From Comamonas koreensis (GTDB lineage Bacteria; Pseudomonadota; Gammaproteobacteria; Burkholderiales; Burkholderiaceae_C), in assembly GCF_014076495.1 (NCBI RefSeq), contig NZ_CP043575.1, positions 1,922,001 through 1,986,000 on the forward strand: 64,000 bases of DNA, written 5' to 3'. Positions 9,051 through 24,147 of the stretch are shown piece by piece. Under the pieces are notes generated by a model. The model saw nothing but the letters and a program-made list of their open reading frames with translations, was not told where the DNA came from and searched no databases. The stretch's first letter is position 1; each line of letters starts with the position of its first letter. The translations under genes and the position numbers were made by a program.

Positions 9051-10133
9051 ATGACGACTGAAGAAATTCGTGCCACTTTGACCCTGTGCCTGCTCGCCTC
9101 GTTCGCCGATGGCGAGAAGCACGAGCGCGAGCGCGAGCAGATCCGCCAGGTGGCCGAGGGCCTGGCGGCCGACCAGCAGATCAACCTGCCCCACCTCTAC
9201 CAGGATGTGCTGCTGCGCCGTGTGCAATTGGGCGATGTGCTGGCCCAACTGCAGACCACCGAGGCGCGCCAGCTCGCCTATGAGATGGCGCTGTGCGTCT
9301 GCGAAGCCGATGGCAGCACCAGCCCCAAGGAAGCGGCCTTTTTGGCGCAACTGCGCGAGGCTTTTGGTACGGCAGGGCAGGCGCCCACCGCGCCCGGTCC
9401 TACCGCAGCGCCTGCAGTGGCTGCCGCGACGGGGATGGCTGCAGCGGCAGCGTTGGCCACGCCGCCCGCGCAGGCGCTGGCCGGCAACCTGGTCGATGCG
9501 CCATTGAACGCCGCCTTGCCCGACACCCCGCTGGCGCTGACGGAGCCCGCGCCCCATCCGGCAGCGGCCGACCCGCTGGTGCCGGCGCAGGCCGAGCGCC
9601 GGCCCTCGAGCTTGTCGGTGGAGGCCATGGACCAGAAGATCCTCAAGGCCTCGATTCTCAACGGTGCGATCGAGCTGCTGCCCGAGAACCTCTCGACGCT
9701 GGCGATCATTCCGCTGCAGATGCGCCTGGTCTACCAGATCGGGCAGAACTATGGCTACGAGCTGGACAAGGGCCACATCAAGGACCTGCTGGGCGCGCTG
9801 GGTGTCGGCTTGACCTCGCAGTACCTGGAGCAGGCGGGGCGCAAGCTGCTGGGTGGGCTGCTGGGCAAGGCCGGCAAGGGCTTGCTCGGCGGCCTGGGCC
9901 GGCAGGCCGTCAGCAGCGGCATGAGCTTTGCCTCCACCTATGCGCTGGGCCATGTCGCCAACCAGTACTACGCCGGCGGGCGCCAGCTGTCGACTGACAT
10001 GCTGAAGAACGCCTACCAGCATGTGATGCAGGATGGCCGCCAGCTGCAGTCGCGCTACCAGGCGCAGATGCAGGAGACCGCGAGCGGCCTGAACACCGCC
10101 AAGATCCTGTCGATGGTGCGTGGCGGTCAGTAG
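9051..10133 (+). CDS. TerB-like domain fused to a DUF697-like C-terminal domain
   Basis: This is a 360-residue protein of unknown function in two parts. Residues 1-110 are alpha-helical and acidic, with TLCLLASFADGEKHERER and ALCVCEADGSTSPKE, the paired D-G-x motifs of TerB/tellurite-resistance-type domains. An Ala/Pro-rich linker covers about 110-190. Residues 200-360 begin with DQKILKASILNGAIELLP, continue IPLQMRLVYQIGQNYGYEL, and run into a Gly-rich amphipathic stretch (KLLGGLLGKAGKGLLGGLG). This resembles the DUF697/YcjF region attached to membrane-associated GTPases, but there is no GTPase here. A GCGGAG ribosome site precedes the ATG. It stands alone between iclR and the repeat proteins. 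A membrane-associated stress role is a guess. Confidence 0.75.
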   Translation: MTTEEIRATLTLCLLASFADGEKHEREREQIRQVAEGLAADQQINLPHLYQDVLLRRVQLGDVLAQLQTTEARQLAYEMALCVCEADGSTSPKEAAFLAQLREAFGTAGQAPTAPGPTAAPAVAAATGMAAAAALATPPAQALAGNLVDAPLNAALPDTPLALTEPAPHPAAADPLVPAQAERRPSSLSVEAMDQKILKASILNGAIELLPENLSTLAIIPLQMRLVYQIGQNYGYELDKGHIKDLLGALGVGLTSQYLEQAGRKLLGGLLGKAGKGLLGGLGRQAVSSGMSFASTYALGHVANQYYAGGRQLSTDMLKNAYQHVMQDGRQLQSRYQAQMQETASGLNTAKILSMVRGGQ

Positions 10134-10651
10134 CGATATTTCTAAATGTAACTATCGCTGTAGGTCAAATGCTTGAATAAATGCAGGACGACACCGGCAA
10201 GGTTGTCAAAATGCATGAATAGTCGCTTGGTGATTTTGCGATGGGGTTCTGCCCAGCCCGCCATTTTGGCGGGCTTTTTTGTCTGACGTCTGCGCGACAA
10301 AAAATCATACAAAAACGAGCACTTATCCTATATTTCTCCTCTGAGTTCTGGCGGAGAAAGACCCGAAGTGCACGGCATATTCTGTCGCTCAAGAGGGCGA
10401 GGGCGGTAACCCGCACAGGCGGTTTGACCCGCTGGCGCAGCCCGCTTTGGTTATAGACCAGAACTAGCTGCGCTTATAGATTCTTTCAATAAATTAATTT
10501 TAGATTTACCAAAGGTTCGCAGTACGGTTGCCCTTGTGAATCGTTGTGTTTGCATGAGTAATCAGCGGCACCTGTCCTCGACCGCCGGGGGGTATGGCCT
10601 GGGTTTATCCCACCCATCCTGGCGTCCTGGCTTGGTGCCCAAGGAGACGCT
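10134..10651. promoter_or_regulatory. 518-base gap: terminator plus conserved leader of the giant repeat protein
   Basis: No gene is seen here. From about 10145 to the ATG at 10652 the sequence aligns by eye with 18855-19361 upstream of the paralogue, at almost the same distance from each start. Shared blocks include ATGTAACnnnCGCTGTA, ATTTCTCCTCTG, TTACCAAAG-TTCGCAGTAC, an ATGAG-AATCAG-GGCACCTGTCCTCG-like block and AAGGAGACGCT before the ATG. The part from 10460 to 10515 is AT-rich and likely contains the promoter. A hairpin terminator lies at 10255-10280, inside the conserved block. Confidence 0.6.
10255..10280 (+). terminator. Rho-independent terminator (or leader attenuator)
   Basis: Perfect 8-bp stem AGCCCGCC/GGCGGGCT with an ATTTT loop, followed by a run of six T. 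It lies 121 bases after the TerB-DUF697 stop and 370 bases before the repeat-protein start. Confidence 0.85.
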
Positions 10652-13600
10652 ATGAACCCGATTGGTGCGCAGAGGACCCTCCGCCATCTGCTCTACGGGG
10701 GGCTCGCGAGCCTGGCCCTCATCTGCAGTTCCGCCGTCCAGGCGGCCTCGGCCGGATCCGGCCGGGCCTATGGCCTGCAGGTCACCGCCGATGTGGTGGG
10801 TGTGGGACTCGGTGTCCCGATTGCCGATACCGGCCAGAAAACGGCACCACCGGATTTCAATACCCCCACCTCGGTCGTCAGTGCGTCTGTCGCTGCAGGC
10901 GTAGGCAATTTGCTGACCGTGCGTACGGGCGTGCTCAACGCCGCCACGCAAAGCAAGCTGGCGCAAAACAGTGTGGTGTCTTCGTCCTCCGTCAACGGCT
11001 TGGCCCTCAAGCTCGCGGGGCTGGCGCTGGGGGCTGACACCATCAGTTCGCAAGCCAAGATGTCGTGCGACAACGGGGTGCCCAAACCAGAGGGCAGCGC
11101 ACAAATCCTCGGGGCGACGGGATCGCTCGTGGGGGTGAGTGTGGCGGCAAATACCCAAACCAATCTGACGATTGGCGTGCCCACGCTCGGAACCATGGTG
11201 GGGGTCGTCCTCCACACCAATGAGCAAATACTGAGCAACCAGGGCAAGACACTGAGCGTCAATGCGCTGCGTGTGGAGCTGGTCGCCTCTGCGCTGGGCG
11301 CGCGGTTGCTCGGTGCATCCGTCGTGGTAGGCAACTCCTCTGCAACCCTGTCCGATTGCGCGCCCACGGTCACGCTGGCGCCCTTGCCGTTGATTACCAC
11401 CAGCAACCAGGCGGCTATATCCGTTAGCGGAACCTGCAGCGCCGGCAGTGGCAATGTGGCCATCAGCTCTACGCCCACCGGCGTGAGCCAGTCGCTGCCT
11501 TGCTCTGCCACTGGCAGCTATTCCGGTTCGGTGGACACCACAGCGCTGGCCGATGGTCCCGTGACGCTCACGGCATCACAGAGCCCCGCAGGGCCGACCA
11601 GCTCGTCGAGCCAGTCCACCACCAAGAACACGGCCCCGGTCTTGCAACCGCCAGTCGTGACGGTCGTCTCTGCGCCGCCTATCACCGCAGCGAACCAGGC
11701 GTCCTACAGCGTCTCGGGCACCTGCTCGGCCAATGGTGCATCGGTCTCCATCCTGGTCGGGGTAGTGCCCGCATCGGCACAGTGCAGCGGCGGCCTCTGG
11801 TCCGCCTCCGGCCTGAATGTCACAGCCGTGCCCAATGGGGCGGTCACGGTCATGGCCTCGCAAACTGTCAGTGGTCTGCTCGGCTCGGGCAGCTTGACGA
11901 CCAGCAAGGACGCCGCAGGGGTTCTGCCCGTGGTGGTCGTTACGTCGGCACCGGCGATCACCGCAGCGAACCAGGCCTCCTATACCGTCTCGGGCACATG
12001 TTCGGTGAACGGCACCAACGTTTCCGTCGTCATCGACACTGTCAATGCCACGGTGCCCTGTACTGGCAATATCTGGGCCGCCGCAGGCCTGGATGTCACG
12101 GCCTTGCCCAATGGGGCTGTCACGGTCACTGCGTCGCAAACCGTTGGTAACCAAACGGGATCGGGCAGTCTGGGGACCACGAAGGACTCGGCCGGTGCTA
12201 TCCCCGTCGTGACCATCAGCCTGGCTCCCGCCATCACGCTGGCCAACCAGGCGGCCTATACGGTTTCGGGCAGCTGCTCGGTCAACGGCAGCAACGTGGC
12301 CGTGCTGGTGGGCTCGGTCGCTGCCTCTGCGCTGTGTGCGAATGGCAGCTGGTCCACGGCCGGCCTGGATGTCAGTGGCTTGCCCAATGGGGCCGTCACG
12401 GTCATGGCGTCGCAAACGTTGGGCGGCCAAACCGGATCGGCCAGCCTGGTGACCAGCAAGGACGTGACGGGCGCCGTGCCCGTGGTAGCGGTGACCTCGG
12501 CCCCCGCGATCACGGCAGTGAACCAGAGCTCTTACACGGTATCTGGTACCTGTTCGGCCAGCGGCACCAACGTGGCCGTGCTGATCGGCTCCATCTCGGC
12601 TGCGGCGCCTTGTAACGGCGGCATCTGGTCCACCGCAGCGGTGGATGTCGGTAGCCTGCTCGATGGCGCGGTCACGGTGACGGCGTCGCAGACGGTGGGC
12701 GGCCAGACGGGATCGGGCAGCCTGCAGACCAGCAAGAACACGGTGGTGGACGCCCCCGTGGTGACCATTAGCTCGGCACCCGCCATCACGGCGCTCAATG
12801 AGGGCGCCTATACCATCTCGGGCACCTGCTCGGCCAATGGCACGAATGTCGCTGTGCTGGTCGGCTCCGTGGCGGCTTCGGCGCCCTGTACGGGCAACAT
12901 CTGGTCCAGCTCAGGTCTCGATGTCAGCGGCTTGGCGGATGGGCCGGTGCTGGTCTCCGCCTCGCAAACGGTAGGCGCGCAAACGGGGTCGGGCACGCTG
13001 GTGACAGCCAAAGACACGGCGGGTGTCGCACCGGTGGTGACCATCAGCGCTGCACCCGCCATCACGGCGCTGAACGAGGCAGCCTATACCGTCTCGGGCA
13101 CTTGCTCGGTCAACGGGTCCAACGTCAACGTCCTGATCGGCTCCATCTCTGCATCGGCGACCTGCGATGCCGGCCTCTGGACCACCCCGGCGCTGAATGT
13201 CGCTGCTTTGCCGGATGGCGCGGTCACCGTGACCGCTTCGCAAACCGCCAATGGCCAAACCGGATCGGGCACGCTGGTGATCGCCAAGGACACGGCGGGA
13301 GTCGCTCCTTCCGTGGCCGTCACCTCGGCTCCCGCCATCACGGGTTCCAACCAGGCGTCCTATGTCGTTTCGGGCACCTGCTCGGCCAACGGCAGCAACG
13401 TGGCCGTTCTGGTCGGCTCCATCGCTGCCACGGCACTGTGCGACGGCGGTGTCTGGGCCACGGCAGGCCTGGATGTCAGTGGCTTGCCCGATGGCGCGGT
13501 CACGGTCACGGCCACGCAAACCGTCGGTGACCGAACGGGATCGGGCAGCCTGGTGACGAGCAAGAGTTCGGCCAGCATCGCTCCTGTGGTGAGCATCACC

Positions 13601-16600
13601 TCGGCGCCTGCGATCACGGCAGCGAACGAGTTGTCCTATACCGTCTCGGGCACCTGCTCGGTCAACGGCACGGGTGTTGATGTGCTGGTCGGCACCGTCG
13701 CTGGCTCGGCGCCCTGCAGTGGCGGCATCTGGTCCACCGCAGGCCTCAATGTCAGTGGCTTGCCCAATGGACCCGTCTCGGTCGTTGCCTCGCAGACGGT
13801 GGGCGGCCTGACGGGCTCGGGGAGTTTGGTGATTGGAAAGGACTCCGAGGGAATCGCCCCGGTGGTCACCATTACCTCGGCGCCCGCGATCACCGCGGCC
13901 AACCAGTCGGCCTATACCGTATCGGGCACCTGCTCGGAAAACGGCGTGGTGGTAACGGTGCATGTCGGTGACGTTGCAGCGGTGCCGCAGCCTGTGTGCA
14001 ACGGCGGCATCTGGTCGACCGCAGCGATGGATGTCAGCGCCTTGCCCGATGAGATGGTGCTGGTGACGGCTTCGCAGACGCTGAACGGCCAAACCGGATC
14101 GGGCAGCCTGGTGACCGCCAAGGACACGGCCGGCATCGCGCCGGTGGTGGCCATCAGCTCGGCACCGGCCATCACGGCTGCCAACCAGTCTGACTATACC
14201 GTCTCGGGTACCTGCACGGTGGATGGCAGCAACGTGGCGGTACTGGTCGGCTCGGTTGCGGCTTCGGCCCCATGCAGCGGCGGCAACTGGACCAGCGCAG
14301 GGCTGGATGTCAGTGGTTTGCCCGATGGATCAGTCACGGTGACGGCCTCGCAAACGGCCGGTGGTTTGACGGGATCGGGCAGTTTGGTGACCGCCAAGGA
14401 CACGGCAGGCGTTGCCCCGTCGGTGTCCATCACTTCGGCAGCGGCGATCACGGCGGCCAACCAGTCGGCCTATGTCGTATCGGGCACTTGCTCGGTCAAC
14501 GGCACGGATGTCTCCGTTCTGGTGGGCCAGGTCGCTGCAGCGGCGCCTTGCAGCAGCGGTACCTGGGTTACCGCTGGCATGGACGTGAGCGGCTTGCCCG
14601 CTGGCGCGGTCACGGTCATGGCATCGCAAACGGCGGGTAGCCAAACGGGATCGGTGAGCCTGGTGATCAACAAGGAGCCGGTGGGGATCGTGCCCGTGGT
14701 GGCCATCACCCTGCCACCTGACATTACCGTATCTAACCAGGCGGCCTACACCGTCTCGGGCACCTGCTCGGTGGCCGGTACCAACGTGGCGGTTCAGGTT
14801 GGATCCATCGCCGCATCGGTGGCATGCGACGGCAGCAGTTGGACCACGGCTCCGCTGGATGTCAGTGGCTTGCCGGATGGATTGGTGACGGTGACCGCCT
14901 CGCAGACCGTGAGTGGCGGCTCGGGATCGGCCAGTGTGGTGGTCAACAAGACTGCGGCCGCTACTGCGCCTGTGGTGACCATTGGCTCTGCTCCCGCCAT
15001 TACGCTGGCCAACCAGGCGTCCTACACGGTCTCGGGCACTTGCTCGGCGAGCGGCATCAGTGTCGCCGTCCAGGTCGGCAGTGTCCCAGCGTCTGCGACC
15101 TGTGACGCGGGAGCCTGGACTGCGTCGGGTCTGAATGTCAGTGCCTTGCCTGACGGGGTGGTCGTCGTGACCGCGGAGCAAATCGTTGGCGGCTTGTCCG
15201 GGTCGGACAGCGTGGAGACCACCAAGGCCACTGCAGCGATTGTTCCTGTGGTGGTCATCACCTCCGCACCTGCAATCACCGCCTTGAATGAGGCCGCCTA
15301 TACCGTCTCGGGCACCTGCTCGGTCAACGGTGAAGTGGTGACGGTACTCGTCGGCTCGATACCCGCATCGGCAACCTGCAGCGATGGCATCTGGGCCACC
15401 GAGCCCATCAATGTCAGTGGGCTGGCTGATGGACAGATTACGGTGCAGGCCTCGCAAGACGCCGGTGGCCAGACGGGAACAGTCAGCCTGGTGATCAGCA
15501 AGGACTCTGCCGGAGCTGCGCCCGCCGTGGGTGTGGTCTCGGCACCGCCGATCACGGCAGCGAACCAATCGGCTTACACCGTCTCGGGTACCTGCTCAGT
15601 CAATGGCGCAGCGGTGGCTGTTCAAATCGGCTCGGTTCCTGCATCGGCGCAGTGCAATGCCGGTATCTGGTCGAGCACGGCCGTGGACGTCAGTGCCTTG
15701 CCCGATGGCCCGGTCACCGTGACAGTTTCGCAAACGCTGGGCAACCAAACCGGCACGGGCAGCCTGGTGACCACCAAGGATGCGGCCGGAATCGTACCCG
15801 TGGTGAGCGTGACGTCGGCACCTGCGATCACGTTGGCGAACCAGGCAGCCTATACCGTCTCGGGCTCTTGCTCGGTGGGCGGCAGCAACGTGGCGGTCCT
15901 GGTCGGGTCGGTATCGGCGTCGGCAGTGTGCAATGCGGGCATCTGGTCCACAGCAGCTGTTGATGTCACTGCCTTGCCTGATGGAGCAGTCACCGTCATG
16001 GCCTCGCAAACTGCCAGTGGTCAAACGGGATCGGGCAGCTTGGTGACCAGCAAGGAGACGGCAGGCGCCGCCCCAGTGGTGACCGTCAGCTCGGCACCCG
16101 CCATTACCGCAGCCAACCAGGCGTCGTATACCGTCTCGGGCAACTGCTCGGCCGACGGCATCCCTGTCGCGGTTCAGGTCGGTTCGGGGGCTGCAAGCGC
16201 GCCATGCGCGGCTGGCAACTGGTCCGCCGCTGGTCTGGATGTCACTGGCCTGGCCGATGGACCGGTCACCGTAACTGCGGCGCAGACCGTCGGCAGTGTG
16301 CTGGGCTCGGGTAGCCTGGTGACCCTCAAGGACACCGCTGGTGTCGTCCCGGTGGTGACCGTTACTTCGGCTCCCGCCATCACGGCTGCCAACCAGGGCT
16401 CGTATGTCGTCTCGGGCAGCTGCTCGGTCAACAGTACGACGGTGGCTGTACAGATCGGCTCGGTGTCGTCATCGGCGCCATGCGCCGGAAACCTCTGGAC
16501 CATCCCCGCGGTGGATGTCAGTGGTCTGCCCGATGGATCGGTCACGGTGACCGTTGCGCAGACGGTTGGCGCCCTGCAGGGATCGGGCAGCCTGGTGACA

Positions 16601-18721
16601 AACAAGAGCACAGGTGGTGTCCAACCCGTGGTGACGATTACCTCGGCTGCGGACATCACGGCAGCCAACCAGTCGGCCTATAGCGTCTCGGGAACCTGCT
16701 CGGTCAACGGTACCAATGTGGATGTGCTGGTCGGCTCGGTGTCCGCATCGGTGCCCTGCACCAGCGGCAGTTGGATGACCGCAGCGTTGAATGTCAGTGG
16801 CTTGCAGGACGGCACGGTCACTGTGACGGCTCAGCAAACGGTGGGGGCCCTGGTGGGGTCGGCCAATGTGCAAGTCAACAAGGGCACTGGCGTAACTACA
16901 CCCGTGGTGACCATTACGTCGGCACCTGCCATCACGGCAGCCAACGCATCGGCGTACTCCGTCTCGGGCACTTGCTCGGTGGGCGGCAGCAATGTGGATG
17001 TGCAGGTCGGCTCGGTGTCTGCAACGGCGCCGTGCATGGGTGGCCTCTGGGCGACCGAGGGCATGGATGTCCGTGGTCTGCCCGATGGAGCAGTTGCCGT
17101 GACGGCATCGCAGACGGACCAAGCCGGCAACACGGGCAGCATCACCCGCGAAGTCTCGAAGTCGACGGGCTCTGGCGGCGAGCTGCCCGAGCCTCCCGTT
17201 GCCCGGATTGCGCCCCAGAACGGTACCTGGATCATCAGCGATGAGCTCAATGGCGAGCCAGGCCGCGGCATGGGTATCGACATCCAGGACGGCGTGCTGT
17301 TCATGCAGGTCTACAACTACCGCCAGTCGGGGGAGGCGACCTTTCACACGGCACTGGGCACCTTGCGCGACAACAAAGTGACCGCTCCGCTGTACTTCTA
17401 CGAAGGCGGGCGCTACTTTGGCAGCGAGCAACGCGATGGCCATGCGGCCGGCAGCCCTGGCAATGTGGTCATCACCTTCACCAGCCGCAGCACCGGTACG
17501 ATCCAGTTCCCGGGCGAGCCGGTAAAGGCCATGCACCGCTTTGACTATGAGGGCACGCCCGCTGGTGTCTTCTCCGATCCGGCCTTTGTCGACCGCTGGG
17601 CCATGGTCGAGCTCAACAGCAGCAACCAACCGGTGCGCAGCTGGTGGGCCGATATCGGCACGAGCGAGCAGGTCTCGATGAGCGAGGATTGGGCGGCAGC
17701 AGCGATGGGCTGGCCATACCCACCTACCGTGGCAACGGCGGTCCATGGCTTTGGCGGCACCTTGTCGGGCCATGTGGTGGCGCAATGCAGCTACGGCGGC
17801 CGGGGTCTGGTGTTCAACTGCTCGGGCAACCGTGCGGGGGCTAACGGTGCGCCGGTGATCGCGATGACGATGCAGCGTGGTGTTGACCAGCTCAGCGGCA
17901 CGGTGAAGGAGGGCGGTGGAGACACCCGGCGCCTGGTGGGCTTCCGCGTGGCCCGTGCTGCCTACTCCTGGCAGGACAACCAGAGCGTGCGCACCAGCTA
18001 CTACGCGCCAGGCTACCTGCCTGAGTCGGGCACCTGGGTCGTCAGTAGCGAGTTGCGGGGCCTGCCAGGTCGCGGTATTTCCATCGAGCTGCAAAAGCCG
18101 CTGAACCAGGAGGAGCATCTGTTGTTCATGTCGGTGTACGACTACCAGAGCGACGGCAAGGCGACGTTCCACAGTGTGCTTGGCGCGCATGACGCATCGA
18201 CCACACCAGAGCCCAACACCCCCGATCTGCCCACAGTGCAGTACCAGGGCGGGCGTTACTTTGGTGGCCCGGCTGCGAGTGCTCGCTTCAACGCGGATGC
18301 GGGACCGACCCGATCGATCCACTTCAGCGCGCCATCGGTGGGAACGCTGGCCTTCCCCGGCGAGCAGCCTTTGCAGATAGAGCGTTTCTACTATGGCGTC
18401 AACAAGGGCTCGGCCCAGTCGCTGCGCGGATCCTGGTCGGTGCTGTCTGCCACGGATGCGATGCCAAGCCGGATCTTCCGCTTCCAAAAGCGCGACGAGA
18501 ACTCGGTCATCGATACCGACTCGGGCTATGTCTGTGTCGCCGAAGTGCTGCGCCAGTACAACTTCCGCTGCACTGGCCCTGCGGGCACACCGGCCTTCCG
18601 TTTTGTTGCCGGATTCTATGGCGCCAGCTCCGGCATTGTGGGAGACGCCGAAGATGCCCCAGCCATCACCGTGATGCGGGTGACGGATCCGAACGGCGAG
18701 ATGGTGCAGGCAGGCGACTGA
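10652..18721 (+). CDS. Giant secreted Ig-like-repeat protein (2689 aa), putative surface adhesin
   Basis: An N-terminal Sec signal ends near VQAASA (about residue 33). A module at about 34-240 starts SGSGRAYGLQVTADVVG and resembles surface choice-of-anchor-type domains. One divergent and then 20 regular Ig-like units of about 92 residues fill about 240-2175. Each has the pattern APAITAANQ-x-YTVSGTCS, VLVGS, a second Cys before GG-x-W, GLPDGAVTVTASQT and a G-S-G-S-LVT-x-KD end. A C-terminal region of about 500 residues holds two related units, GTWIISDELNGEPGRG and GTWVVSSELRGLPGRG. There is no transmembrane anchor, LPXTG, RTX repeat or autotransporter barrel, so the export route and surface retention are unknown. 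AAGGAG lies 7 bases before the ATG. The paralogue at 19361 shares both ends. An adhesin or matrix role is inferred from architecture. Confidence 0.85.
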   Translation: MNPIGAQRTLRHLLYGGLASLALICSSAVQAASAGSGRAYGLQVTADVVGVGLGVPIADTGQKTAPPDFNTPTSVVSASVAAGVGNLLTVRTGVLNAATQSKLAQNSVVSSSSVNGLALKLAGLALGADTISSQAKMSCDNGVPKPEGSAQILGATGSLVGVSVAANTQTNLTIGVPTLGTMVGVVLHTNEQILSNQGKTLSVNALRVELVASALGARLLGASVVVGNSSATLSDCAPTVTLAPLPLITTSNQAAISVSGTCSAGSGNVAISSTPTGVSQSLPCSATGSYSGSVDTTALADGPVTLTASQSPAGPTSSSSQSTTKNTAPVLQPPVVTVVSAPPITAANQASYSVSGTCSANGASVSILVGVVPASAQCSGGLWSASGLNVTAVPNGAVTVMASQTVSGLLGSGSLTTSKDAAGVLPVVVVTSAPAITAANQASYTVSGTCSVNGTNVSVVIDTVNATVPCTGNIWAAAGLDVTALPNGAVTVTASQTVGNQTGSGSLGTTKDSAGAIPVVTISLAPAITLANQAAYTVSGSCSVNGSNVAVLVGSVAASALCANGSWSTAGLDVSGLPNGAVTVMASQTLGGQTGSASLVTSKDVTGAVPVVAVTSAPAITAVNQSSYTVSGTCSASGTNVAVLIGSISAAAPCNGGIWSTAAVDVGSLLDGAVTVTASQTVGGQTGSGSLQTSKNTVVDAPVVTISSAPAITALNEGAYTISGTCSANGTNVAVLVGSVAASAPCTGNIWSSSGLDVSGLADGPVLVSASQTVGAQTGSGTLVTAKDTAGVAPVVTISAAPAITALNEAAYTVSGTCSVNGSNVNVLIGSISASATCDAGLWTTPALNVAALPDGAVTVTASQTANGQTGSGTLVIAKDTAGVAPSVAVTSAPAITGSNQASYVVSGTCSANGSNVAVLVGSIAATALCDGGVWATAGLDVSGLPDGAVTVTATQTVGDRTGSGSLVTSKSSASIAPVVSITSAPAITAANELSYTVSGTCSVNGTGVDVLVGTVAGSAPCSGGIWSTAGLNVSGLPNGPVSVVASQTVGGLTGSGSLVIGKDSEGIAPVVTITSAPAITAANQSAYTVSGTCSENGVVVTVHVGDVAAVPQPVCNGGIWSTAAMDVSALPDEMVLVTASQTLNGQTGSGSLVTAKDTAGIAPVVAISSAPAITAANQSDYTVSGTCTVDGSNVAVLVGSVAASAPCSGGNWTSAGLDVSGLPDGSVTVTASQTAGGLTGSGSLVTAKDTAGVAPSVSITSAAAITAANQSAYVVSGTCSVNGTDVSVLVGQVAAAAPCSSGTWVTAGMDVSGLPAGAVTVMASQTAGSQTGSVSLVINKEPVGIVPVVAITLPPDITVSNQAAYTVSGTCSVAGTNVAVQVGSIAASVACDGSSWTTAPLDVSGLPDGLVTVTASQTVSGGSGSASVVVNKTAAATAPVVTIGSAPAITLANQASYTVSGTCSASGISVAVQVGSVPASATCDAGAWTASGLNVSALPDGVVVVTAEQIVGGLSGSDSVETTKATAAIVPVVVITSAPAITALNEAAYTVSGTCSVNGEVVTVLVGSIPASATCSDGIWATEPINVSGLADGQITVQASQDAGGQTGTVSLVISKDSAGAAPAVGVVSAPPITAANQSAYTVSGTCSVNGAAVAVQIGSVPASAQCNAGIWSSTAVDVSALPDGPVTVTVSQTLGNQTGTGSLVTTKDAAGIVPVVSVTSAPAITLANQAAYTVSGSCSVGGSNVAVLVGSVSASAVCNAGIWSTAAVDVTALPDGAVTVMASQTASGQTGSGSLVTSKETAGAAPVVTVSSAPAITAANQASYTVSGNCSADGIPVAVQVGSGAASAPCAAGNWSAAGLDVTGLADGPVTVTAAQTVGSVLGSGSLVTLKDTAGVVPVVTVTSAPAITAANQGSYVVSGSCSVNSTTVAVQIGSVSSSAPCAGNLWTIPAVDVSGLPDGSVTVTVAQTVGALQGSGSLVTNKSTGGVQPVVTITSAADITAANQSAYSVSGTCSVNGTNVDVLVGSVSASVPCTSGSWMTAALNVSGLQDGTVTVTAQQTVGALVGSANVQVNKGTGVTTPVVTITSAPAITAANASAYSVSGTCSVGGSNVDVQVGSVSATAPCMGGLWATEGMDVRGLPDGAVAVTASQTDQAGNTGSITREVSKSTGSGGELPEPPVARIAPQNGTWIISDELNGEPGRGMGIDIQDGVLFMQVYNYRQSGEATFHTALGTLRDNKVTAPLYFYEGGRYFGSEQRDGHAAGSPGNVVITFTSRSTGTIQFPGEPVKAMHRFDYEGTPAGVFSDPAFVDRWAMVELNSSNQPVRSWWADIGTSEQVSMSEDWAAAAMGWPYPPTVATAVHGFGGTLSGHVVAQCSYGGRGLVFNCSGNRAGANGAPVIAMTMQRGVDQLSGTVKEGGGDTRRLVGFRVARAAYSWQDNQSVRTSYYAPGYLPESGTWVVSSELRGLPGRGISIELQKPLNQEEHLLFMSVYDYQSDGKATFHSVLGAHDASTTPEPNTPDLPTVQYQGGRYFGGPAASARFNADAGPTRSIHFSAPSVGTLAFPGEQPLQIERFYYGVNKGSAQSLRGSWSVLSATDAMPSRIFRFQKRDENSVIDTDSGYVCVAEVLRQYNFRCTGPAGTPAFRFVAGFYGASSGIVGDAEDAPAITVMRVTDPNGEMVQAGD
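11654..17180 (+). repeat. Tandem array of 20 coding repeats, about 276 bp each
   Basis: Twenty successive in-frame units encode Ig-like domains; most are exactly 92 codons, with one unit around 13862 longer by two residues (AAVPQPVCNGG). The DNA is clearly related from unit to unit, especially around the codons for TVSGTCSVNG and GLPDGAVTV, but not identical, so the array is old or diversifying rather than freshly amplified. A divergent extra unit precedes it at about 11370-11650. Confidence 0.93.
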
Positions 18722-19360
18722 GGCCAAGGAGCCACCGCGGGCCGGCCAAGGCGCAGCGGTGGCAACTGAGCCGGGTTGCGGTCCAGATAAAGCATCTACT
18801 TGCGGGGTGAAGGCTATGGCGCTGTTGCCAAATCGGCATCGAATCTATGCCAGGATGTAACCGCCGCTGTAAGCCGAGGCCTTGATTTGACGGTAGAAGG
18901 CGCTGTCAGATATGTCAGACGGAGCAGAGTTGAGACGGCTCCCGGGGGCTATGTACCTCTCCGCCGCACCTGGCCCACCGTGATTGGGGGGCACTTTGGT
19001 GACTGCGAGGGCTGCGAGCGACCTTTGCAAAAAAATGCATTTATGCGCGATTTCTCCTCTGTAAATCCGCAGTGCAGTAGCAAGGGTGGGTCCGACATGG
19101 GCGGATTGGACAGGTCTGCTCCCCCTGTGCTGTGCGGCCCGTAAGAGCCGGGGCTGTTGTAACCAGCTATTGGGGGGAGATGGTTGTGCTTATAAGTGTG
19201 CTCAATAAAATAATTTACCGTTTACCAAAGATTCGCAGTACCTTTGCGCTTGTGAGTAGTTGTGTTTGTATGAGCAATCAGCAGCACCTGTCCTCGGCCG
19301 GTTGGTGGGGTCTGAGTGGATCACCCCAACGGGCGTTATGGCGGTGCAGAAGGAGACGCT
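18722..19360. promoter_or_regulatory. 639-base gap between the two repeat-protein genes
   Basis: No gene is supported here. The first 45 bases hold an imperfect hairpin (GCCACCGC at 18731-18738 pairing with GCGGTGGC at 18756-18763) without a T run, possibly the 3' end of the first transcript. From about 18855 the sequence is a second copy of the leader found upstream of 10652. The AT-rich stretch at 19190-19250 (TTATAA, CAATAAAATAATTT, TTACCAAAGATTCGCAGTAC) is the best promoter candidate. A GTCAGATATGTCAGAC near-repeat lies at about 18905. Confidence 0.55.
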
Positions 19361-22300
19361 ATGAACCCGATTGGTGCACAGAGAACTATCCGCCGTCTGC
19401 TGTACGGGGGGCTTGCAGGGCTGGCCTTCGTCTGCAGCACTTCCGCCCTGGCGGCATCCTCAGGATCCGGGCGGGCCTATGGCCTGCAGGTCACTGCCGA
19501 TGTGCTCGGGGCAGGGTTGGGAGTCCCATTTGCGGATACCGGCCAAAAAAGTGCACCACCGGATTTCAACACGCCTGTTTCTGTAGCGAGTGTGGGCGTG
19601 ACCGCCGGAGCCAATCTGCTGAGCGTGGGCACGGGTGTCATCAACTCCTCCACCCAAAGCAATCTGGCGCAGAACAACGTGGTATCCAACAGCTCCGTGG
19701 ACGGTTTGAACCTGACGCTGGCGGGGTTGTCTCTGGGTGCCAATACCATCAGCTCTCAAGCCCGTATGGCCTGCGTCAACGGCGTGCCGCAAGGCTCGGG
19801 CGATGCCCAGATACTCGGCGGAACCGGCGCGCTCAGCGGAGTCAGCGCAAGCCTCAATGGTCTTGTAAACCTGACGATCGGGGTGCCAACCATTGGCACG
19901 GAGGTGGGTGTCAAGCTCTACACCAATGAGCAAAGCCAAAGTGGCACCTCCATGAGCGTGACCGCGCTGCGCATTGAGTTGGTGGCCAAGGCCTTGACCC
20001 TGCCTTTGCTCAACGCCTCGGTGATCGTGGGCAACTCCACCGCATCCATGCCCGATTGCAAGCCCACGGTGACCCTGAATCCTCTGCCGCCGATCAACGC
20101 GGGCAACCAGGCGTCGGTGCCCATCAGCGGCAGTTGCAGTGCCGGCAGCGGCAATGTGGCCTTCAGCTCCAACCCAGCAGGCGTGAGCCAGTCGCTGCCC
20201 TGTGCAGCAGACGGCACCTATTCGGGCTCGGTCAATGCACAAGGCCTGCCCGATGGCACGGTGACGATCACCGCGACACAGACGGTGTCCGGACAGCCCC
20301 CTGGCTCGGCGAGCCAGTCGACCACCAAGAGCACGGGCGCGGTACCCCAGTTGCCGGTGGTGGCCGTCGTTGCGGCGCCCCAGATCACGGCAGCGAACCA
20401 GGCCTCGTACACGGTGTCGGGCACCTGTTCGGCCAATGGTGAGGCGGTGGCCGTCATGGTTGGATCGGTCCCGGCATCGGCGCTGTGCGGCGGCGGTGTC
20501 TGGTCGGCCTCGGGCATCAATGTGAGCGGTTTGCCTGATGGATCGGTCACGGTGACGGCCTCGCAAACGGTGGGCGGTCAGACCGGCTCGGGTAGCCTGG
20601 TGACCGGCAAGGACGCGACCGCCCCCGCGGTGGCGATTACCTCGGCACCGGTGATCAATGCGGCCAACCAGTCGTCGTATGGCGTGGCGGGCAGCTGCTC
20701 TGAAAACGGGGCGGCGGTCACGGTGCGCGTGGGGACCGTGGCTACTGTGCCGCAGCCTGTGTGCAACAGCGGTATCTGGTCTGCCTCGGGCATGGATGTC
20801 AGTGGCTTGCCTGCGGGCTCTGTCACGGTGACTGCCATGCAAACCGATGCCGCAGGCAATACCGGCAGTGCCAGCCGCGCAACCAGCAAGGAGAGCACGG
20901 CCGCTGCTGTGACCGTGGTTGTCGCGCCTCGCATCAACAGTGGCAATCAGGCCAGTTATGGCGGCGTCTCCGGTGCCTGCAGCGCCTCTGGCGGTGGGGT
21001 GACGGTGGCGATCGGTAGTGTCAGCAGCTCGGCGGCCTGCAATGCCGGCAACTGGGTGGTGAGCGGTGTCGACGTGCGCAGCCTGCCAGAGGGCACGGTG
21101 GTGGTGAAAGCCTCGCAGACGGTGGCAGGCACTGTCATCTCCGGCTCGCTCAACACGGTGAAGGACACGACGGCGCCGGCGGTCTCGATCAGCACCGCGC
21201 CGACCATCGACACCTCCAACCAGAATTCGTACAGCCCAGCGGGAACTTGCACCAGCGGCGATGGTGCGGTAACAGTGAGCGTCGGTGCGATCAAGGTGAC
21301 GGTGGCTTGCGTCAACGGTAACTGGACTGCACCCGGTATGCAGGTAGGGGCCTTGCCCAAGGGCTCGGTCACGGTGACGGCATCGCAGACCGATGACGCG
21401 GGCAATACCGGCAGCAGCACGCGACAGGTCTCGAAAACCTCCGACGCCACCGGCGAGTTGCCCACCACCCTGATTGCAGCCCAGAGTGGCACCTGGATCA
21501 TCAGCGATGAACTCAATGGCGAGCCAGGGCGTGGCATGGGCATCGACATCCAGGATGGCGTGCTGTTCATGCAGGTCTACAACTACCGCCAATCAGGTGC
21601 GCCGACCTTCCATACCGCACTCGGTATCTTGCACGACAATACGGTGACCGCTCCGCTGTACTTCTATGAAGGCGGGCGCTTCTTTGGCAGCGAGCAACGC
21701 GATGGCCATGAAGCGGGCAGCCCTGGTAATGTCGTGATCACGTTCACCAGCCGCAGCAGGGGCACGATCCAGTTCCCCGGCGAACCTGTCAAGGCCATGC
21801 AGCGCTACGACTATGAGGGCACGCCAGCCGGGGTCTTCTCCGACCCGGCCTTTGTGGATCGCTGGGCCATGGTCGAGTTCAACAGCAACAACCAGCCGGT
21901 GCGCAGCTGGTGGGCTGACATTGGCAGCAGCGAACAGGTCGCGATGAGCGAAGCGCTGACCACCGCCGCGGTCACCTGGCCCTATCCTCCAACCGCCGCG
22001 ACCACTGTGCACGGCTTTGGCGGTACCTTGAGCGGCCATGTGCTGGCGCAGTGCAGCTATGGTGGCTCGGGGGTGGTCTTCAACTGCTCTGGCAACCGAG
22101 CAGGGGGTGCGGGTAGCGGTGGCCCAGTGGCGCTGACCTTGCAGCGTGGTGTCGACCAACTGAGCGGAACCGTGCGCGAAGGCGGCGACGAGGCACGGCG
22201 CCTGGTAGGCTTCCGCGTGGCGCGCGCCGCCTACACCCGGCAGAACAACCAGAATGTGCGCACCAGCTACTACGCGCCAGGCTATGCGCCGGAATCGGGC

Positions 22301-22990
22301 ACCTGGATCGTCAGCAGCGAATTGCGCGGCCTGCCCGGACGGGGTATTTCGATTGAGCTGCAAAAGCCCATGAACGCTGAGGACCATATGCTGTTCATGT
22401 CGGTATACAACTACGAAAGCAATGGCCTGGCGACCTTCCACAGCCTGCTGGGCGCGCACGATGCCTCCACCACGCCAGAGCCCAACACCCCCGATCTGCC
22501 CACGGTGCAGTACCAGGGTGGGCGCTACTTTGGTGGCCCGGCAGCGGTGGCGCGCTTCAAGGCGGATGCGGGACTGACCAAGTCGATCCACTTCAGCGCG
22601 CCATCGGTGGGAACGCTGGTCTTCCCCGGTGAGCAAGCGGTACAGATCGAGCGCTTCTACTACGGTGTGAACAAGGCCTCGGCCCAGTCGCTGCGCGGAT
22701 CCTGGGTGCTGCTGTCGCAAACGGATGCGATAGCCAGCCGCAGCTTCCGCTTCCAGACACGCGATGCCAACTCGGTGATCGATGCGGCCTCGGGCTATGT
22801 CTGTGTCGCCGAAGTGCTGCGCCAGTTCAACTTCCGCTGCACCGGCCCATCAGGCTCCCCAGCCTTCCGCTTTGTGGCCGGCTTCTATGGCGCCAGCACC
22901 GGCATTGTGGGAGACGCCGAGGATGCGCCGGCCATCACCGTGGTGCGGGTGACCGACCCGAACGGCGAGATGGTGCAGGCGGGCGACTGA
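19361..22990 (+). CDS. Secreted Ig-like-repeat protein (1209 aa), short paralogue of the giant protein
   Basis: This gene has the same architecture as its upstream neighbour. A Sec signal ends at ALAASS, and the N-terminal module starts SGSGRAYGLQVTADVLG. One divergent plus four regular Ig-like units follow (about residues 240-698), against 21 in the neighbour. The C-terminal region carries GTWIISDELNGEPGRG, GTWIVSSELRGLPGRG and the identical tail DPNGEMVQAGD. The ends are strongly conserved and the middle is not, as expected after a duplication followed by gain or loss of repeats. Two of its units contain TDAAGNTGS or TDDAGNTGS, a motif typical of bacterial Ig-like adhesin domains. The ATG at 19361 has AAGGAG upstream; codons back to 19316 lie in the leader. 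Function is inferred to be surface or matrix attachment. Confidence 0.85.
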   Translation: MNPIGAQRTIRRLLYGGLAGLAFVCSTSALAASSGSGRAYGLQVTADVLGAGLGVPFADTGQKSAPPDFNTPVSVASVGVTAGANLLSVGTGVINSSTQSNLAQNNVVSNSSVDGLNLTLAGLSLGANTISSQARMACVNGVPQGSGDAQILGGTGALSGVSASLNGLVNLTIGVPTIGTEVGVKLYTNEQSQSGTSMSVTALRIELVAKALTLPLLNASVIVGNSTASMPDCKPTVTLNPLPPINAGNQASVPISGSCSAGSGNVAFSSNPAGVSQSLPCAADGTYSGSVNAQGLPDGTVTITATQTVSGQPPGSASQSTTKSTGAVPQLPVVAVVAAPQITAANQASYTVSGTCSANGEAVAVMVGSVPASALCGGGVWSASGINVSGLPDGSVTVTASQTVGGQTGSGSLVTGKDATAPAVAITSAPVINAANQSSYGVAGSCSENGAAVTVRVGTVATVPQPVCNSGIWSASGMDVSGLPAGSVTVTAMQTDAAGNTGSASRATSKESTAAAVTVVVAPRINSGNQASYGGVSGACSASGGGVTVAIGSVSSSAACNAGNWVVSGVDVRSLPEGTVVVKASQTVAGTVISGSLNTVKDTTAPAVSISTAPTIDTSNQNSYSPAGTCTSGDGAVTVSVGAIKVTVACVNGNWTAPGMQVGALPKGSVTVTASQTDDAGNTGSSTRQVSKTSDATGELPTTLIAAQSGTWIISDELNGEPGRGMGIDIQDGVLFMQVYNYRQSGAPTFHTALGILHDNTVTAPLYFYEGGRFFGSEQRDGHEAGSPGNVVITFTSRSRGTIQFPGEPVKAMQRYDYEGTPAGVFSDPAFVDRWAMVEFNSNNQPVRSWWADIGSSEQVAMSEALTTAAVTWPYPPTAATTVHGFGGTLSGHVLAQCSYGGSGVVFNCSGNRAGGAGSGGPVALTLQRGVDQLSGTVREGGDEARRLVGFRVARAAYTRQNNQNVRTSYYAPGYAPESGTWIVSSELRGLPGRGISIELQKPMNAEDHMLFMSVYNYESNGLATFHSLLGAHDASTTPEPNTPDLPTVQYQGGRYFGGPAAVARFKADAGLTKSIHFSAPSVGTLVFPGEQAVQIERFYYGVNKASAQSLRGSWVLLSQTDAIASRSFRFQTRDANSVIDAASGYVCVAEVLRQFNFRCTGPSGSPAFRFVAGFYGASTGIVGDAEDAPAITVVRVTDPNGEMVQAGD
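20357..21450 (+). repeat. Four tandem Ig-like coding repeats of the short paralogue
   Basis: Four units of about 270-280 bp encode the same fold as the 11654-17180 array but have diverged further from each other. Cys pairs are retained in each (SGTCS, AGSCS, SGACS, AGTCT with a later Cys before the G-x-W). Confidence 0.85.
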
Positions 22991-23133
22991 GGAGGGGACA
23001 CATCGCTGGCCCGGCCTTAGCCGGCCGGGCCGGACCTGGCCTCCCCAGGCCGGGCACAGCGGTGGCTACTGACCCTGCGGGACAGGTCCGGGGCCAGACC
23101 TGTTAAAATACCTGGGCGCCAAGCACTACTGAG

Positions 23134-23173
23134 CAACGGTTTCGCAGAAAACGCCTGCAAACCGTTGTTTTTT
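23134..23173 (+). terminator. Rho-independent terminator
   Basis: Stem CAACGGTTT-c-GCAG pairs with CTGC-AAACCGTTG (one bulged C), followed by six T. It probably ends transcription from the repeat-protein gene. Confidence 0.85.
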
Positions 23174-23276
23174 ATTGCCTGCGCCACAGGCGCTGGCCGG
23201 GCATTGCGAAGACATGCTGGCAGCGACGACGACCGTTTCGCATCCCCGGCCTGTGCTGTCTGGATGCGGCTCGCGA

Positions 23277-23302
23277 GCCAGCAGGCATCCTGCTGGCTTT
23301 TT
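23277..23302 (+). terminator. Rho-independent terminator
   Basis: Perfect 8-bp stem GCCAGCAG/CTGCTGGC with a GCATC loop and five T. It lies 104 bases after the previous terminator with no gene between them, which leaves room for a small RNA. Confidence 0.8.
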
Positions 23303-23508
23303 CTTCGTCTGTGGTCGACAAACCGGGCACAATGTCCGATATTGAAGATATTGCGCCGCTCGGGTGGGTGGCGCATGGAGAGTCGCCAACCTGGCCCCGC
23401 ATCGGTGGCTGTGCTGGCGCCTTGTGCAGAGCGATGCGGCGTGCCGTGTCATCAGGCGTGGGGTTGGCGAGCGCAAGCGGGCAGCCCCCATTTAGGAAGG
23501 TACAGAAC

Positions 23509-24147
23509 ATGCCCAGTTACAACCCACCCTTTGAGATCCATGTCCACGGACAAGTGCTGCTGCGCGCCGATGTCGGCTTTGACCAGCTGCAAGAGGCCTT
23601 GAAACCGCTGTGGGGCTATGCGGGCGCCAAGTCCCTGGTCGATGGCGCGGAGAGCGCTTACGAGGAAGAGCCCGGCATTCTGTTCGAGCCCAAGGACCAT
23701 ATGCTGCAGATGTGCTGGACGGTGCGCGGCGATGATGATTTTCGCCAGTCGCTCGACGACATGTGCATGAACCTCAATGAGCTGGCCGACCAGGGCGCGG
23801 CGATCGAGGTCACTTTCTATGACGCCGAGTTTGACGATGAGGAGCAGGACCGCAGCGCCGAGTCGCGCGATGACTTCATGATGCTGTTTGTGGGCCCGAC
23901 GCCTGCGGCCATCATGCAGGTGCAGCGCGACATGCTGGTGCAGGACGTGGTGAGCACGATGGAGCGCCACTTCGATGCCGGTGAACTCGTCGGTGTCGTC
24001 GGTGAGATCGACAAGCTGTTCAGCCAGCGCTTTGATGCGCTGGTCGATTCACTGGAGATCGGCAAGCCGCCTCGCGGCACGGGTGGCACCGGCGGCCCTG
24101 GTGGTGGCCACGGCGGCGGCGGTCGCCGCCCGCGCCACCTGCACTGA
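23509..24147 (+). CDS. Acidic hypothetical protein with Gly-rich tail
   Basis: This 212-residue protein has no recognised domain. It starts MPSYNPPFEIHVHGQVLLR and has a strongly acidic middle (EFDDEEQDRSAESRDD at about 125-140). After a helical stretch with VQRDMLVQDVVSTMERHFD it ends in a tail rich in Gly, then Arg and His (GGGHGGGGRRPRHLH). The ATG at 23509 is preceded by AGGAAGG at the right spacing, which rules out the upstream in-frame starts. There is no signal peptide or membrane segment, so it is cytoplasmic. It is followed by a terminator and the metallopeptidase gene. I recall similar conserved hypothetical proteins from Burkholderiales but cannot name a function. Confidence 0.75.
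   Translation: MPSYNPPFEIHVHGQVLLRADVGFDQLQEALKPLWGYAGAKSLVDGAESAYEEEPGILFEPKDHMLQMCWTVRGDDDFRQSLDDMCMNLNELADQGAAIEVTFYDAEFDDEEQDRSAESRDDFMMLFVGPTPAAIMQVQRDMLVQDVVSTMERHFDAGELVGVVGEIDKLFSQRFDALVDSLEIGKPPRGTGGTGGPGGGHGGGGRRPRHLH

What the first reader, a model, noticed from the sequence alone, without database searches (positions are those of the whole stretch)
10652..22990. Paralogous secreted repeat proteins with 21 versus 5 Ig-like units
Two adjacent genes share signal peptide, N-terminal module and a long C-terminal region with an identical tail, yet differ by about 1480 residues because of Ig-like unit number (1+20 against 1+4). Conserved ends with a variable middle suggest a duplicated surface system in which length is tuned by repeat gain or loss, perhaps giving long and short forms of one adhesin. 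No secretion gene (type I, two-partner or autotransporter) lies nearby.
Basis: partly seen in the sequence, partly recalled or inferred. Interest (0 to 1): 0.72.

Follow-up and report, generated by a model that had tools for sequence, protein, structure and literature searches.

The report
Comamonas long/short Ig-rod secreted-protein pair
Two neighbouring Comamonas genes encode secreted-looking rod proteins with the same ends, a short form with a fixed number of domains and a long form whose domain number differs between strains through in-frame losses, which looks like a way to set how far a surface protein reaches.

Summary
Gene A (10652-18721, 2689 aa) has 1+20 Ig-like units. Gene B has 1+4 and really starts at ATG 19361 (1209 aa). 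N-modules are 70% and C-terminal regions 85% identical. In relatives A varies (19, 20, 26, 29, 30 or 31 tandem units in twelve distinct sequences) while B stays at 4. Some differences lie between near-identical alleles. The window's last unit is a chimera of two units of a 26-unit relative, joined at an 8-nt match: a net in-frame loss of six units. Trees make A one derived group among short forms. Units are only 61% (protein) and 69% (DNA) alike, so this is not the high-identity repeat switching of classical Periscope Proteins. All 265 tandem A units counted keep two cysteines 20-24 residues apart. Export probably runs Sec, then type II secretion (GspD/GspE encoded elsewhere); this is inferred. 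The C-terminus is two copies of a module without Pfam or NCBIfam hit, predicted as paired beta-barrels, also in eight other genes of this genome; it sits where some relatives end in a hydrophobic, sorting-like tail. Adhesion is plausible, not shown. New variant of a known kind.

The parts
10476..10651 (+). 5' leader of A, conserved with the leader of B
   Evidence: 85% mean column identity over 9 A and B leaders from six genomes; in the own genome the B leader finds itself and A, else only short matches with E 0.46 or more
10652..18721 (+). gene A, long form, 2689 aa
10652..10744 (+). A signal peptide (residues 1-31, cut by eye after VQA)
   Evidence: sequence; not run through a predictor
10745..11353 (+). 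A N-module, choice-of-anchor P (NF040603), 62.7 bits against cut-off 27
11360..11635 (+). A unit 1, divergent Ig-like unit
   Evidence: 50 bits
11642..17167 (+). A tandem array, 20 Ig-like units of about 92 residues, each with two Cys
16892..17167 (+). A unit 21, chimera of relative's units 21 and 27 = scar of a net 6-unit in-frame deletion
17060..17067 (+). 8-nt stretch shared by both parental units at the crossover
   Evidence: recount
17210..18022 (+). A C-terminal module copy 1
   Evidence: fold from B counterpart
18023..18718 (+). A C-terminal module copy 2
19188..19360 (+). 5' leader of B
19361..22990 (+). gene B, short form, 1209 aa
19454..20053 (+). B N-module, choice-of-anchor P (NF040603), 56.2 bits (genome search) / 50.6 bits (protein scan)
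   Evidence: model
20060..20335 (+). B unit 1, divergent Ig-like unit
20345..21445 (+). B units 2-5, four Ig-like units
   Evidence: fold of the first of them
21473..22288 (+). B C-terminal module copy 1, predicted as two consecutive runs of eight strands (barrels, my reading)
22289..22987 (+). B C-terminal module copy 2, predicted as two consecutive runs of eight strands (barrels, my reading)

Best explanation
A and B are a pair of Sec-exported, disulphide-stapled Ig-rod proteins of the Comamonas koreensis/squillarum group that work like a fixed and an adjustable reach. The short protein (1+4 units) is the older form. A tandem gene duplication gave A, whose array was enlarged with copies of mostly one unit type (the unit-2 type) while the first and last units were kept. 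Since then whole units have been lost in frame by recombination between diverged units, leaving chimeric junction units, so strains carry rods of 19 to 31 units beside a constant 4-unit protein. The shared leader suggests common control. The rod separates the N-module from the C-terminal duplicated barrel module, which sits where some relatives carry a hydrophobic tail and which also occurs alone; it most likely binds a surface or matrix ligand, or holds the protein to the envelope. Since folded disulphide units suit neither type I secretion nor an autotransporter, and no translocator barrel or canonical lipobox was found, the likely route is Sec, periplasmic folding, then type II secretion. 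Shown here: anatomy, paralogy, variation, deletion scar, purifying selection, conserved cysteines; the order of events is supported by trees. Inferred: disulphides, surface display, export route, adhesion, any benefit of length.
Against: No experiment places either protein on the surface or shows binding. A GspD/GspE pair is common and does not name its substrates. A Cys at position 25, inside the signal region, is kept in all A and B orthologues that I listed; the residue before it is I or V, which does not fit a canonical lipobox (recalled rule), but lipidation is not excluded. The C-module's fold matches are weak: Foldseek found none at E <= 0.001, and the best VIA Z, 8.1, is about the stated background. 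Length differences could be neutral. The export argument rests partly on recalled knowledge that type I and type V passengers are cysteine-poor. In the N-module tree A is not nested in B. B also recombines (mosaic identity) yet its number stays fixed, which selection or lower unit similarity could each explain.
Confidence: 0.6

Rival explanations
1. Secreted biofilm-matrix proteins rather than surface-anchored rods: A and B are released and cross-link matrix polysaccharide through the barrel modules; rod length sets mesh spacing.
For: No LPXTG or RTX nonapeptide in either protein and no anchor found; the same C-module occurs in eight further genes whose open frames (287-794 aa) are too short for a comparable array (three read in full); RbmA and Bap chains are among the fold matches of the Ig part, as many other Ig-like proteins are.
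Against: No ligand known for the module; nothing here separates release from retention.
Confidence: 0.25
2. Length variation in A is a neutral by-product: a long array of similar units loses units by chance and no length is favoured.
For: Events look like losses at different places; purifying selection acts on residues, not visibly on number.
Against: The short gene is constant although recombination touches it; arrays shorter than 19 units were not seen in twelve A sequences. Neither is strong.
Confidence: 0.35
3. A and B belong to the RTX/type I giant adhesins (LapA/MpAFP/SiiE-like).
For: NF033510 Ca_tandemer above cut-off; profile and fold matches to 6xi3, 4p99, 5irb. A profile of eight A units alone found no PDB sequence at E <= 0.01.
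Against: N-terminal Sec signal by eye, no RTX nonapeptide, DxxGN only in the last A unit and B units 3 and 5, two Cys in every tandem unit, no type I genes among the 30 ORFs scanned nearby.
Confidence: 0.05
4. The barrel module is a type XI (Slam) type cargo domain, so export runs through a Slam protein.
Against: Z lies in the range that the tool calls common background; no SlipAM (PF04575) match in the genome, though no control genome rang either.
Confidence: 0.05
5. The different unit counts are assembly artefacts.
For: Repeats are a known cause of wrong assemblies (PMC6868369, search listing and start of abstract only).
Against: Units are about 69% identical as DNA in the window's A and the longest exact repeat in the five A genes read as DNA (one of them cut at its 5' end) is 31-49 nt, so ordinary short reads should resolve them; G000, G017 and G031 are single contigs.
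Confidence: 0.03

Closest known systems
Periscope Proteins (SasG, Rib, Sgo_0707, CdrA)
   Same: Folded tandem domains form a stalk; domain number differs between close strains; loss by recombination inside the gene is the proposed cause.
   Different: The published screen required repeats over 50 residues with at least 80% identity and reports the most extreme variation at the highest identity (PMC8201768, passages read; review PMC9704523, passages read). Here mean unit identity is 61% (protein) and 69% (DNA), maximum 75% and 79% in the window, and the crossover had an 8-nt exact match. A constant short paralogue sits next door.
InvL of Acinetobacter baumannii
   Same: Ig-like adhesin that leaves the cell by type II secretion.
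   Different: Three predicted Ig-like domains, predicted lipoprotein, lectin-like tip (PMC9245377, passages read); no large variable array described in the passages seen; relation by sequence not tested.
RTX giant adhesins with Ca2+ extender repeats (MpAFP RII, Lap, SiiE)
   Same: Nearest solved structures for the Ig units.
   Different: Sec signal, two Cys per unit, no RTX repeats.
Choice-of-anchor P proteins P0180 (Ottowia sp. by source name) and P0181 (unnamed)
   Same: Same N-module and 1+4 Ig-like units.
   Different: They end in a short hydrophobic segment plus arginines, like a sorting tail; Comamonas ends in the duplicated barrel module instead.

Membership tests
Periscope Proteins | Stalk of tandem folded domains | tested here: met
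   (predicted fold of two units only)
Periscope Proteins | Repeat number differs between strains | tested here: met
   A: six counts in twelve distinct sequences; B: not variable
Periscope Proteins | Highly identical repeats (screen: >=80% identity over >50 residues) | tested here: not met
   window A units: mean 61%, max 75% protein identity; mean 69%, max 79% DNA. The closest pairs in other A genes reach 81-85% protein identity (KCTC 12005, G017, G007). Criterion from PMC8201768
Periscope Proteins | Attached to the cell surface | not testable with these tools
   no recognisable anchor found
RTX/type I giant adhesins | Ig-like extender repeats | tested here: met
RTX/type I giant adhesins | RTX nonapeptides | tested here: not met
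   0 GGxGxDxx in A and B
RTX/type I giant adhesins | C-terminal type I secretion signal | tested here: inconclusive
   the C-terminus is the barrel module; no model of the signal was run
Choice-of-anchor P family (NF040603) | N-module over the curated cut-off | tested here: met
   A 62.7 and B 56.2 bits against 27
Choice-of-anchor P family (NF040603) | A C-terminal sorting/anchor signal (not known to be required) | tested here: inconclusive
   none in A or B at E <= 0.1 in NCBIfam; hydrophobic tails by eye in P0180, P0181, P0076, of which only P0181 scored at all, below cut-off (TIGR02595 13.5 of 16, TIGR01167 13.6 of 15.9)
Inverse autotransporters (intimin/invasin) | Outer-membrane beta-barrel translocator | tested here: inconclusive
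   no such Pfam hit at E <= 0.1; the N-module model has long strands but its fold was not matched
Type II secretion substrates | Sec signal and GspD-dependent export | not testable with these tools
   signal seen by eye; GspD/GspE encoded; dependence needs a mutant
TbpB/fHbp-type barrel (type XI cargo) | Barrel fold shared with TbpB C-lobe | tested here: inconclusive

The most novel reading that the evidence does not exclude
A fixed-reach plus variable-reach protein pair under one shared leader: the short paralogue is held at four units as a reference length while the long one changes length by recombination between strongly diverged units. The duplicated double-barrel module is a new family of envelope- or polysaccharide-holding domain that has replaced a sortase-type tail, as one more 'choice of anchor'.
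Probability: 0.2. Interest if true: 0.75.

Novelty: new variant of a known kind. Interest (0 to 1): 0.5.

Why it matters
It gives a clean natural comparison: a length-variable and a length-constant copy of the same secreted protein in one cell, with a breakpoint readable at base level. It suggests that stalk-length change does not need near-identical repeats, so screens that demand 80% identity can miss such proteins. It also points to an uncurated secreted barrel module (10 genes in this genome) and to a conserved 5' leader, both easy to test.

Tried and rejected
Assembly artefact: rejected, longest exact repeat in the window's A is 34 nt and three genomes are single contigs. RTX/type I membership: rejected on RTX repeats, Cys and signal. 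Slam/type XI route: only background-level fold similarity and no SlipAM hit, with no control ringing. Exosortase: one match of 34.5 bits, over the family's cut-off of 25.7, in the genome, not followed further, so nothing is claimed about a sorting system. Leader as a known RNA: two hits up to E 1 over 10000-23500, both below their gathering scores and chance-like. The leader's consensus fold has one pair with changes on both sides out of 34 and an unfavourable covariation term, so no RNA structure is claimed. Foldseek on the C-module: 0 matches at E <= 0.001; PDB sequence search with its profile: 0 at E <= 1. N-module: the listed matches cover residues 232-419, so its fold is barely tested. 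Literature: 'Comamonas'+'adhesin'+'Ig-like' 0 papers; 'Comamonas'+'Ig-like domain' 3 papers, none on this by title and abstract start; 'choice-of-anchor P', 'anchor P family' or NF040603 0 papers; 'choice-of-anchor' 20 papers, 15 listed, none on this by title. These are the searches behind saying that I found nothing in print; only open-licence PMC papers are held. Two more searches gave the papers cited.

What was used of what: one search returned 43 proteins, 30 of them went into the C-module alignment A1 (36 rows) and 13 were scanned for modules. One search returned 118 proteins; I used the nine A orthologues P0046-P0054, of which some have no source name. One search returned 62; I scanned 21 of them (P0164-P0182, P0076, P0088). 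Cysteines were tallied in ten of the twelve A sequences, the other two. Trees left out KCTC_A because that locus was cut inside the N-module; its full protein P0051 was used. In one search unit matches below 62% were dropped by the threshold of the unit alignment. In one search a 270-nt 100% hit is my own overlap of the two query stretches and was ignored.
Full report
What is there. Gene A (10652-18721) encodes 2689 residues and gene B (19361-22990) 1209 residues. Both have a Sec-type signal peptide by eye, an N-module of the choice-of-anchor P family, Ig-like units of about 92 residues, and a C-terminal region of about 505 residues that is itself two copies of one module. A profile of A's units counts 21 in A and 5 in B; the first is divergent in both. 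N-modules are 69.7% and C-regions 85.3% identical.

Where it lives. Named relatives with close matches are Comamonas: C. koreensis KCTC 12005, Comamonas sp. B21-038, BIGb0152 and JUb58, and C. piscis and C. squillarum by source name. I did not determine the species of the window. The locus is syntenic between the TerB-domain gene (9051-10133) and the DUF6806 gene (23311-24147) in five of the six relatives read: G031, G017, G007, G019 and KCTC 12005 (5' side of the last). Around the single gene of G008 no other window gene was found in 20 kb. G007 has only A, and its 3' flank matches the flank of B genes, as if B had been lost by recombination between the two tails (inferred). G019 has only B.

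Does unit number vary? Twelve distinct A sequences have 20 (window), 19, 26 (four), 29 (three), 30 and 31 (two) tandem units. B-type genes have 4 in five genome copies and in six of six protein clusters; single-copy short forms have 5 (six clusters and G008) or 4 (three clusters).

How it varies. Units keep their order between genomes: the window's units 1-20 pair one to one with KCTC 12005 units 1-20. Its unit 21 begins as KCTC unit 21 and ends as KCTC unit 27. In DNA the switch falls in an 8-nt stretch identical in both parents (17060-17067), and a locus alignment shows 1650 nt more in KCTC at that point. KCTC 12005, P0046 and G031 all carry units there, so this is most simply a loss in the window. 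P0046 and P0053 lack the window's unit 19, with unit 18 carrying the tail of unit 19. P0053 also joins unit 20 to the 27-type end, but with the switch some residues later than in the window, so its tail loss is probably separate; one loss followed by conversion is not excluded. KCTC unit 22 looks like a fusion of P0046 units 21 and 22. Within A arrays mean unit identity is 56-61% for protein over five genomes, with single pairs up to 75% in the window and 85% in G007, and 68-69% for DNA in the two measured, window and G031. B units are less alike (61-62% DNA; longest exact run between units 14-17 nt against 34 and 31 in the window's and G031's A), which may be why B does not change.

Order of events. 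In both the N-module tree (34 rows) and the C-region tree (34 rows) the 13 A rows form one group, support 100/99. In the C tree A lies inside the B rows, with the single-copy short forms outside; in the N tree B is a weak group of its own (74/84). The root drawn is the midpoint. Most A middle units are nearest to B unit 2, some to unit 3, and in the four full-length arrays compared the last two are nearest to B units 4 and 5. So the short form is most likely older and A grew by multiplying mostly one unit type. Between the window and KCTC, A is 79-88% identical over its first half and 97-100% over most of the second (one 400-nt block 93.5%), against 87-94% in most of the flank blocks, and B is mosaic too: alleles recombine between lineages. 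dN/dS is 0.02-0.33 in all segments compared, so both genes are kept as proteins.

Choice of anchor. P0180 (Ottowia sp. by source name), P0181 and P0076 have a similar N-part and Ig units but end in a short hydrophobic stretch followed by basic residues. The N-module profile and NF040603 find the module in the first two and not in P0076. Only P0181 scored against sorting-signal models, below cut-off. So the Comamonas C-module stands in the place of what looks like a sorting tail. That it serves as an anchor is inference.

Leader. About 175 nt before each start are conserved between A and B in nine sequences (85% mean column identity); a whole-genome search with the B leader finds only itself, A and short matches with E 0.46 or more. 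Common regulation is likely; an RNA structure is not supported.

Mechanism and doubt. I take Sec export, periplasmic folding with disulphides and type II secretion as most likely, because a secretin and ATPase of that system are encoded and an Ig-like adhesin using it is known (PMC9245377, passages). A Cys at position 25 of the signal region is conserved in the 12 distinct A and 5 B sequences listed, without a canonical lipobox, so lipidation stays open. Surface display, adhesion and any advantage of length are not shown. Against the Periscope definition, the variable stalk is met and high repeat identity is not, so I file it as working like one, not as a member.

Noticed in passing
window 10476-10651 and 19188-19360: A 5' leader shared by A and B in the six genomes read and, apart from short chance-like matches, unique to them in the own genome; role unknown.
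   Followed up: partly
own genome C1: 461834, 515430, 2444083, 3750813, 3797041, 3816257, 4049314, 4054364: Eight further genes with the uncurated barrel module (three single, five double), two of them near each other at 4.05 Mb.
   Followed up: partly
L053 (G007) and L054 (G019): Relatives keep only A or only B at the same place; G007's A carries the 3' flank of B genes.
   Followed up: yes
window 10577-14576 against 14577-18976: Sharp identity switch inside A against C. koreensis KCTC 12005 (about 79-88% to mostly 97-100%), a sign of recombination between lineages.
   Followed up: yes
window 10724-10726 and 19433-19435 (codon 25 of A and B): A Cys inside the signal region kept in all 12 distinct A and 5 B sequences listed, though not in a canonical lipobox.
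   Followed up: no
   Followed up: no
window 29741-31807 and 53299-56196: A GGDEF gene and a GGDEF-EAL gene in the window (c-di-GMP signalling); no link to A or B tested.
   Followed up: no
own genome C1:4794245-4795555: A GspD-like secretin reading frame interrupted by a TAA.
   Followed up: no
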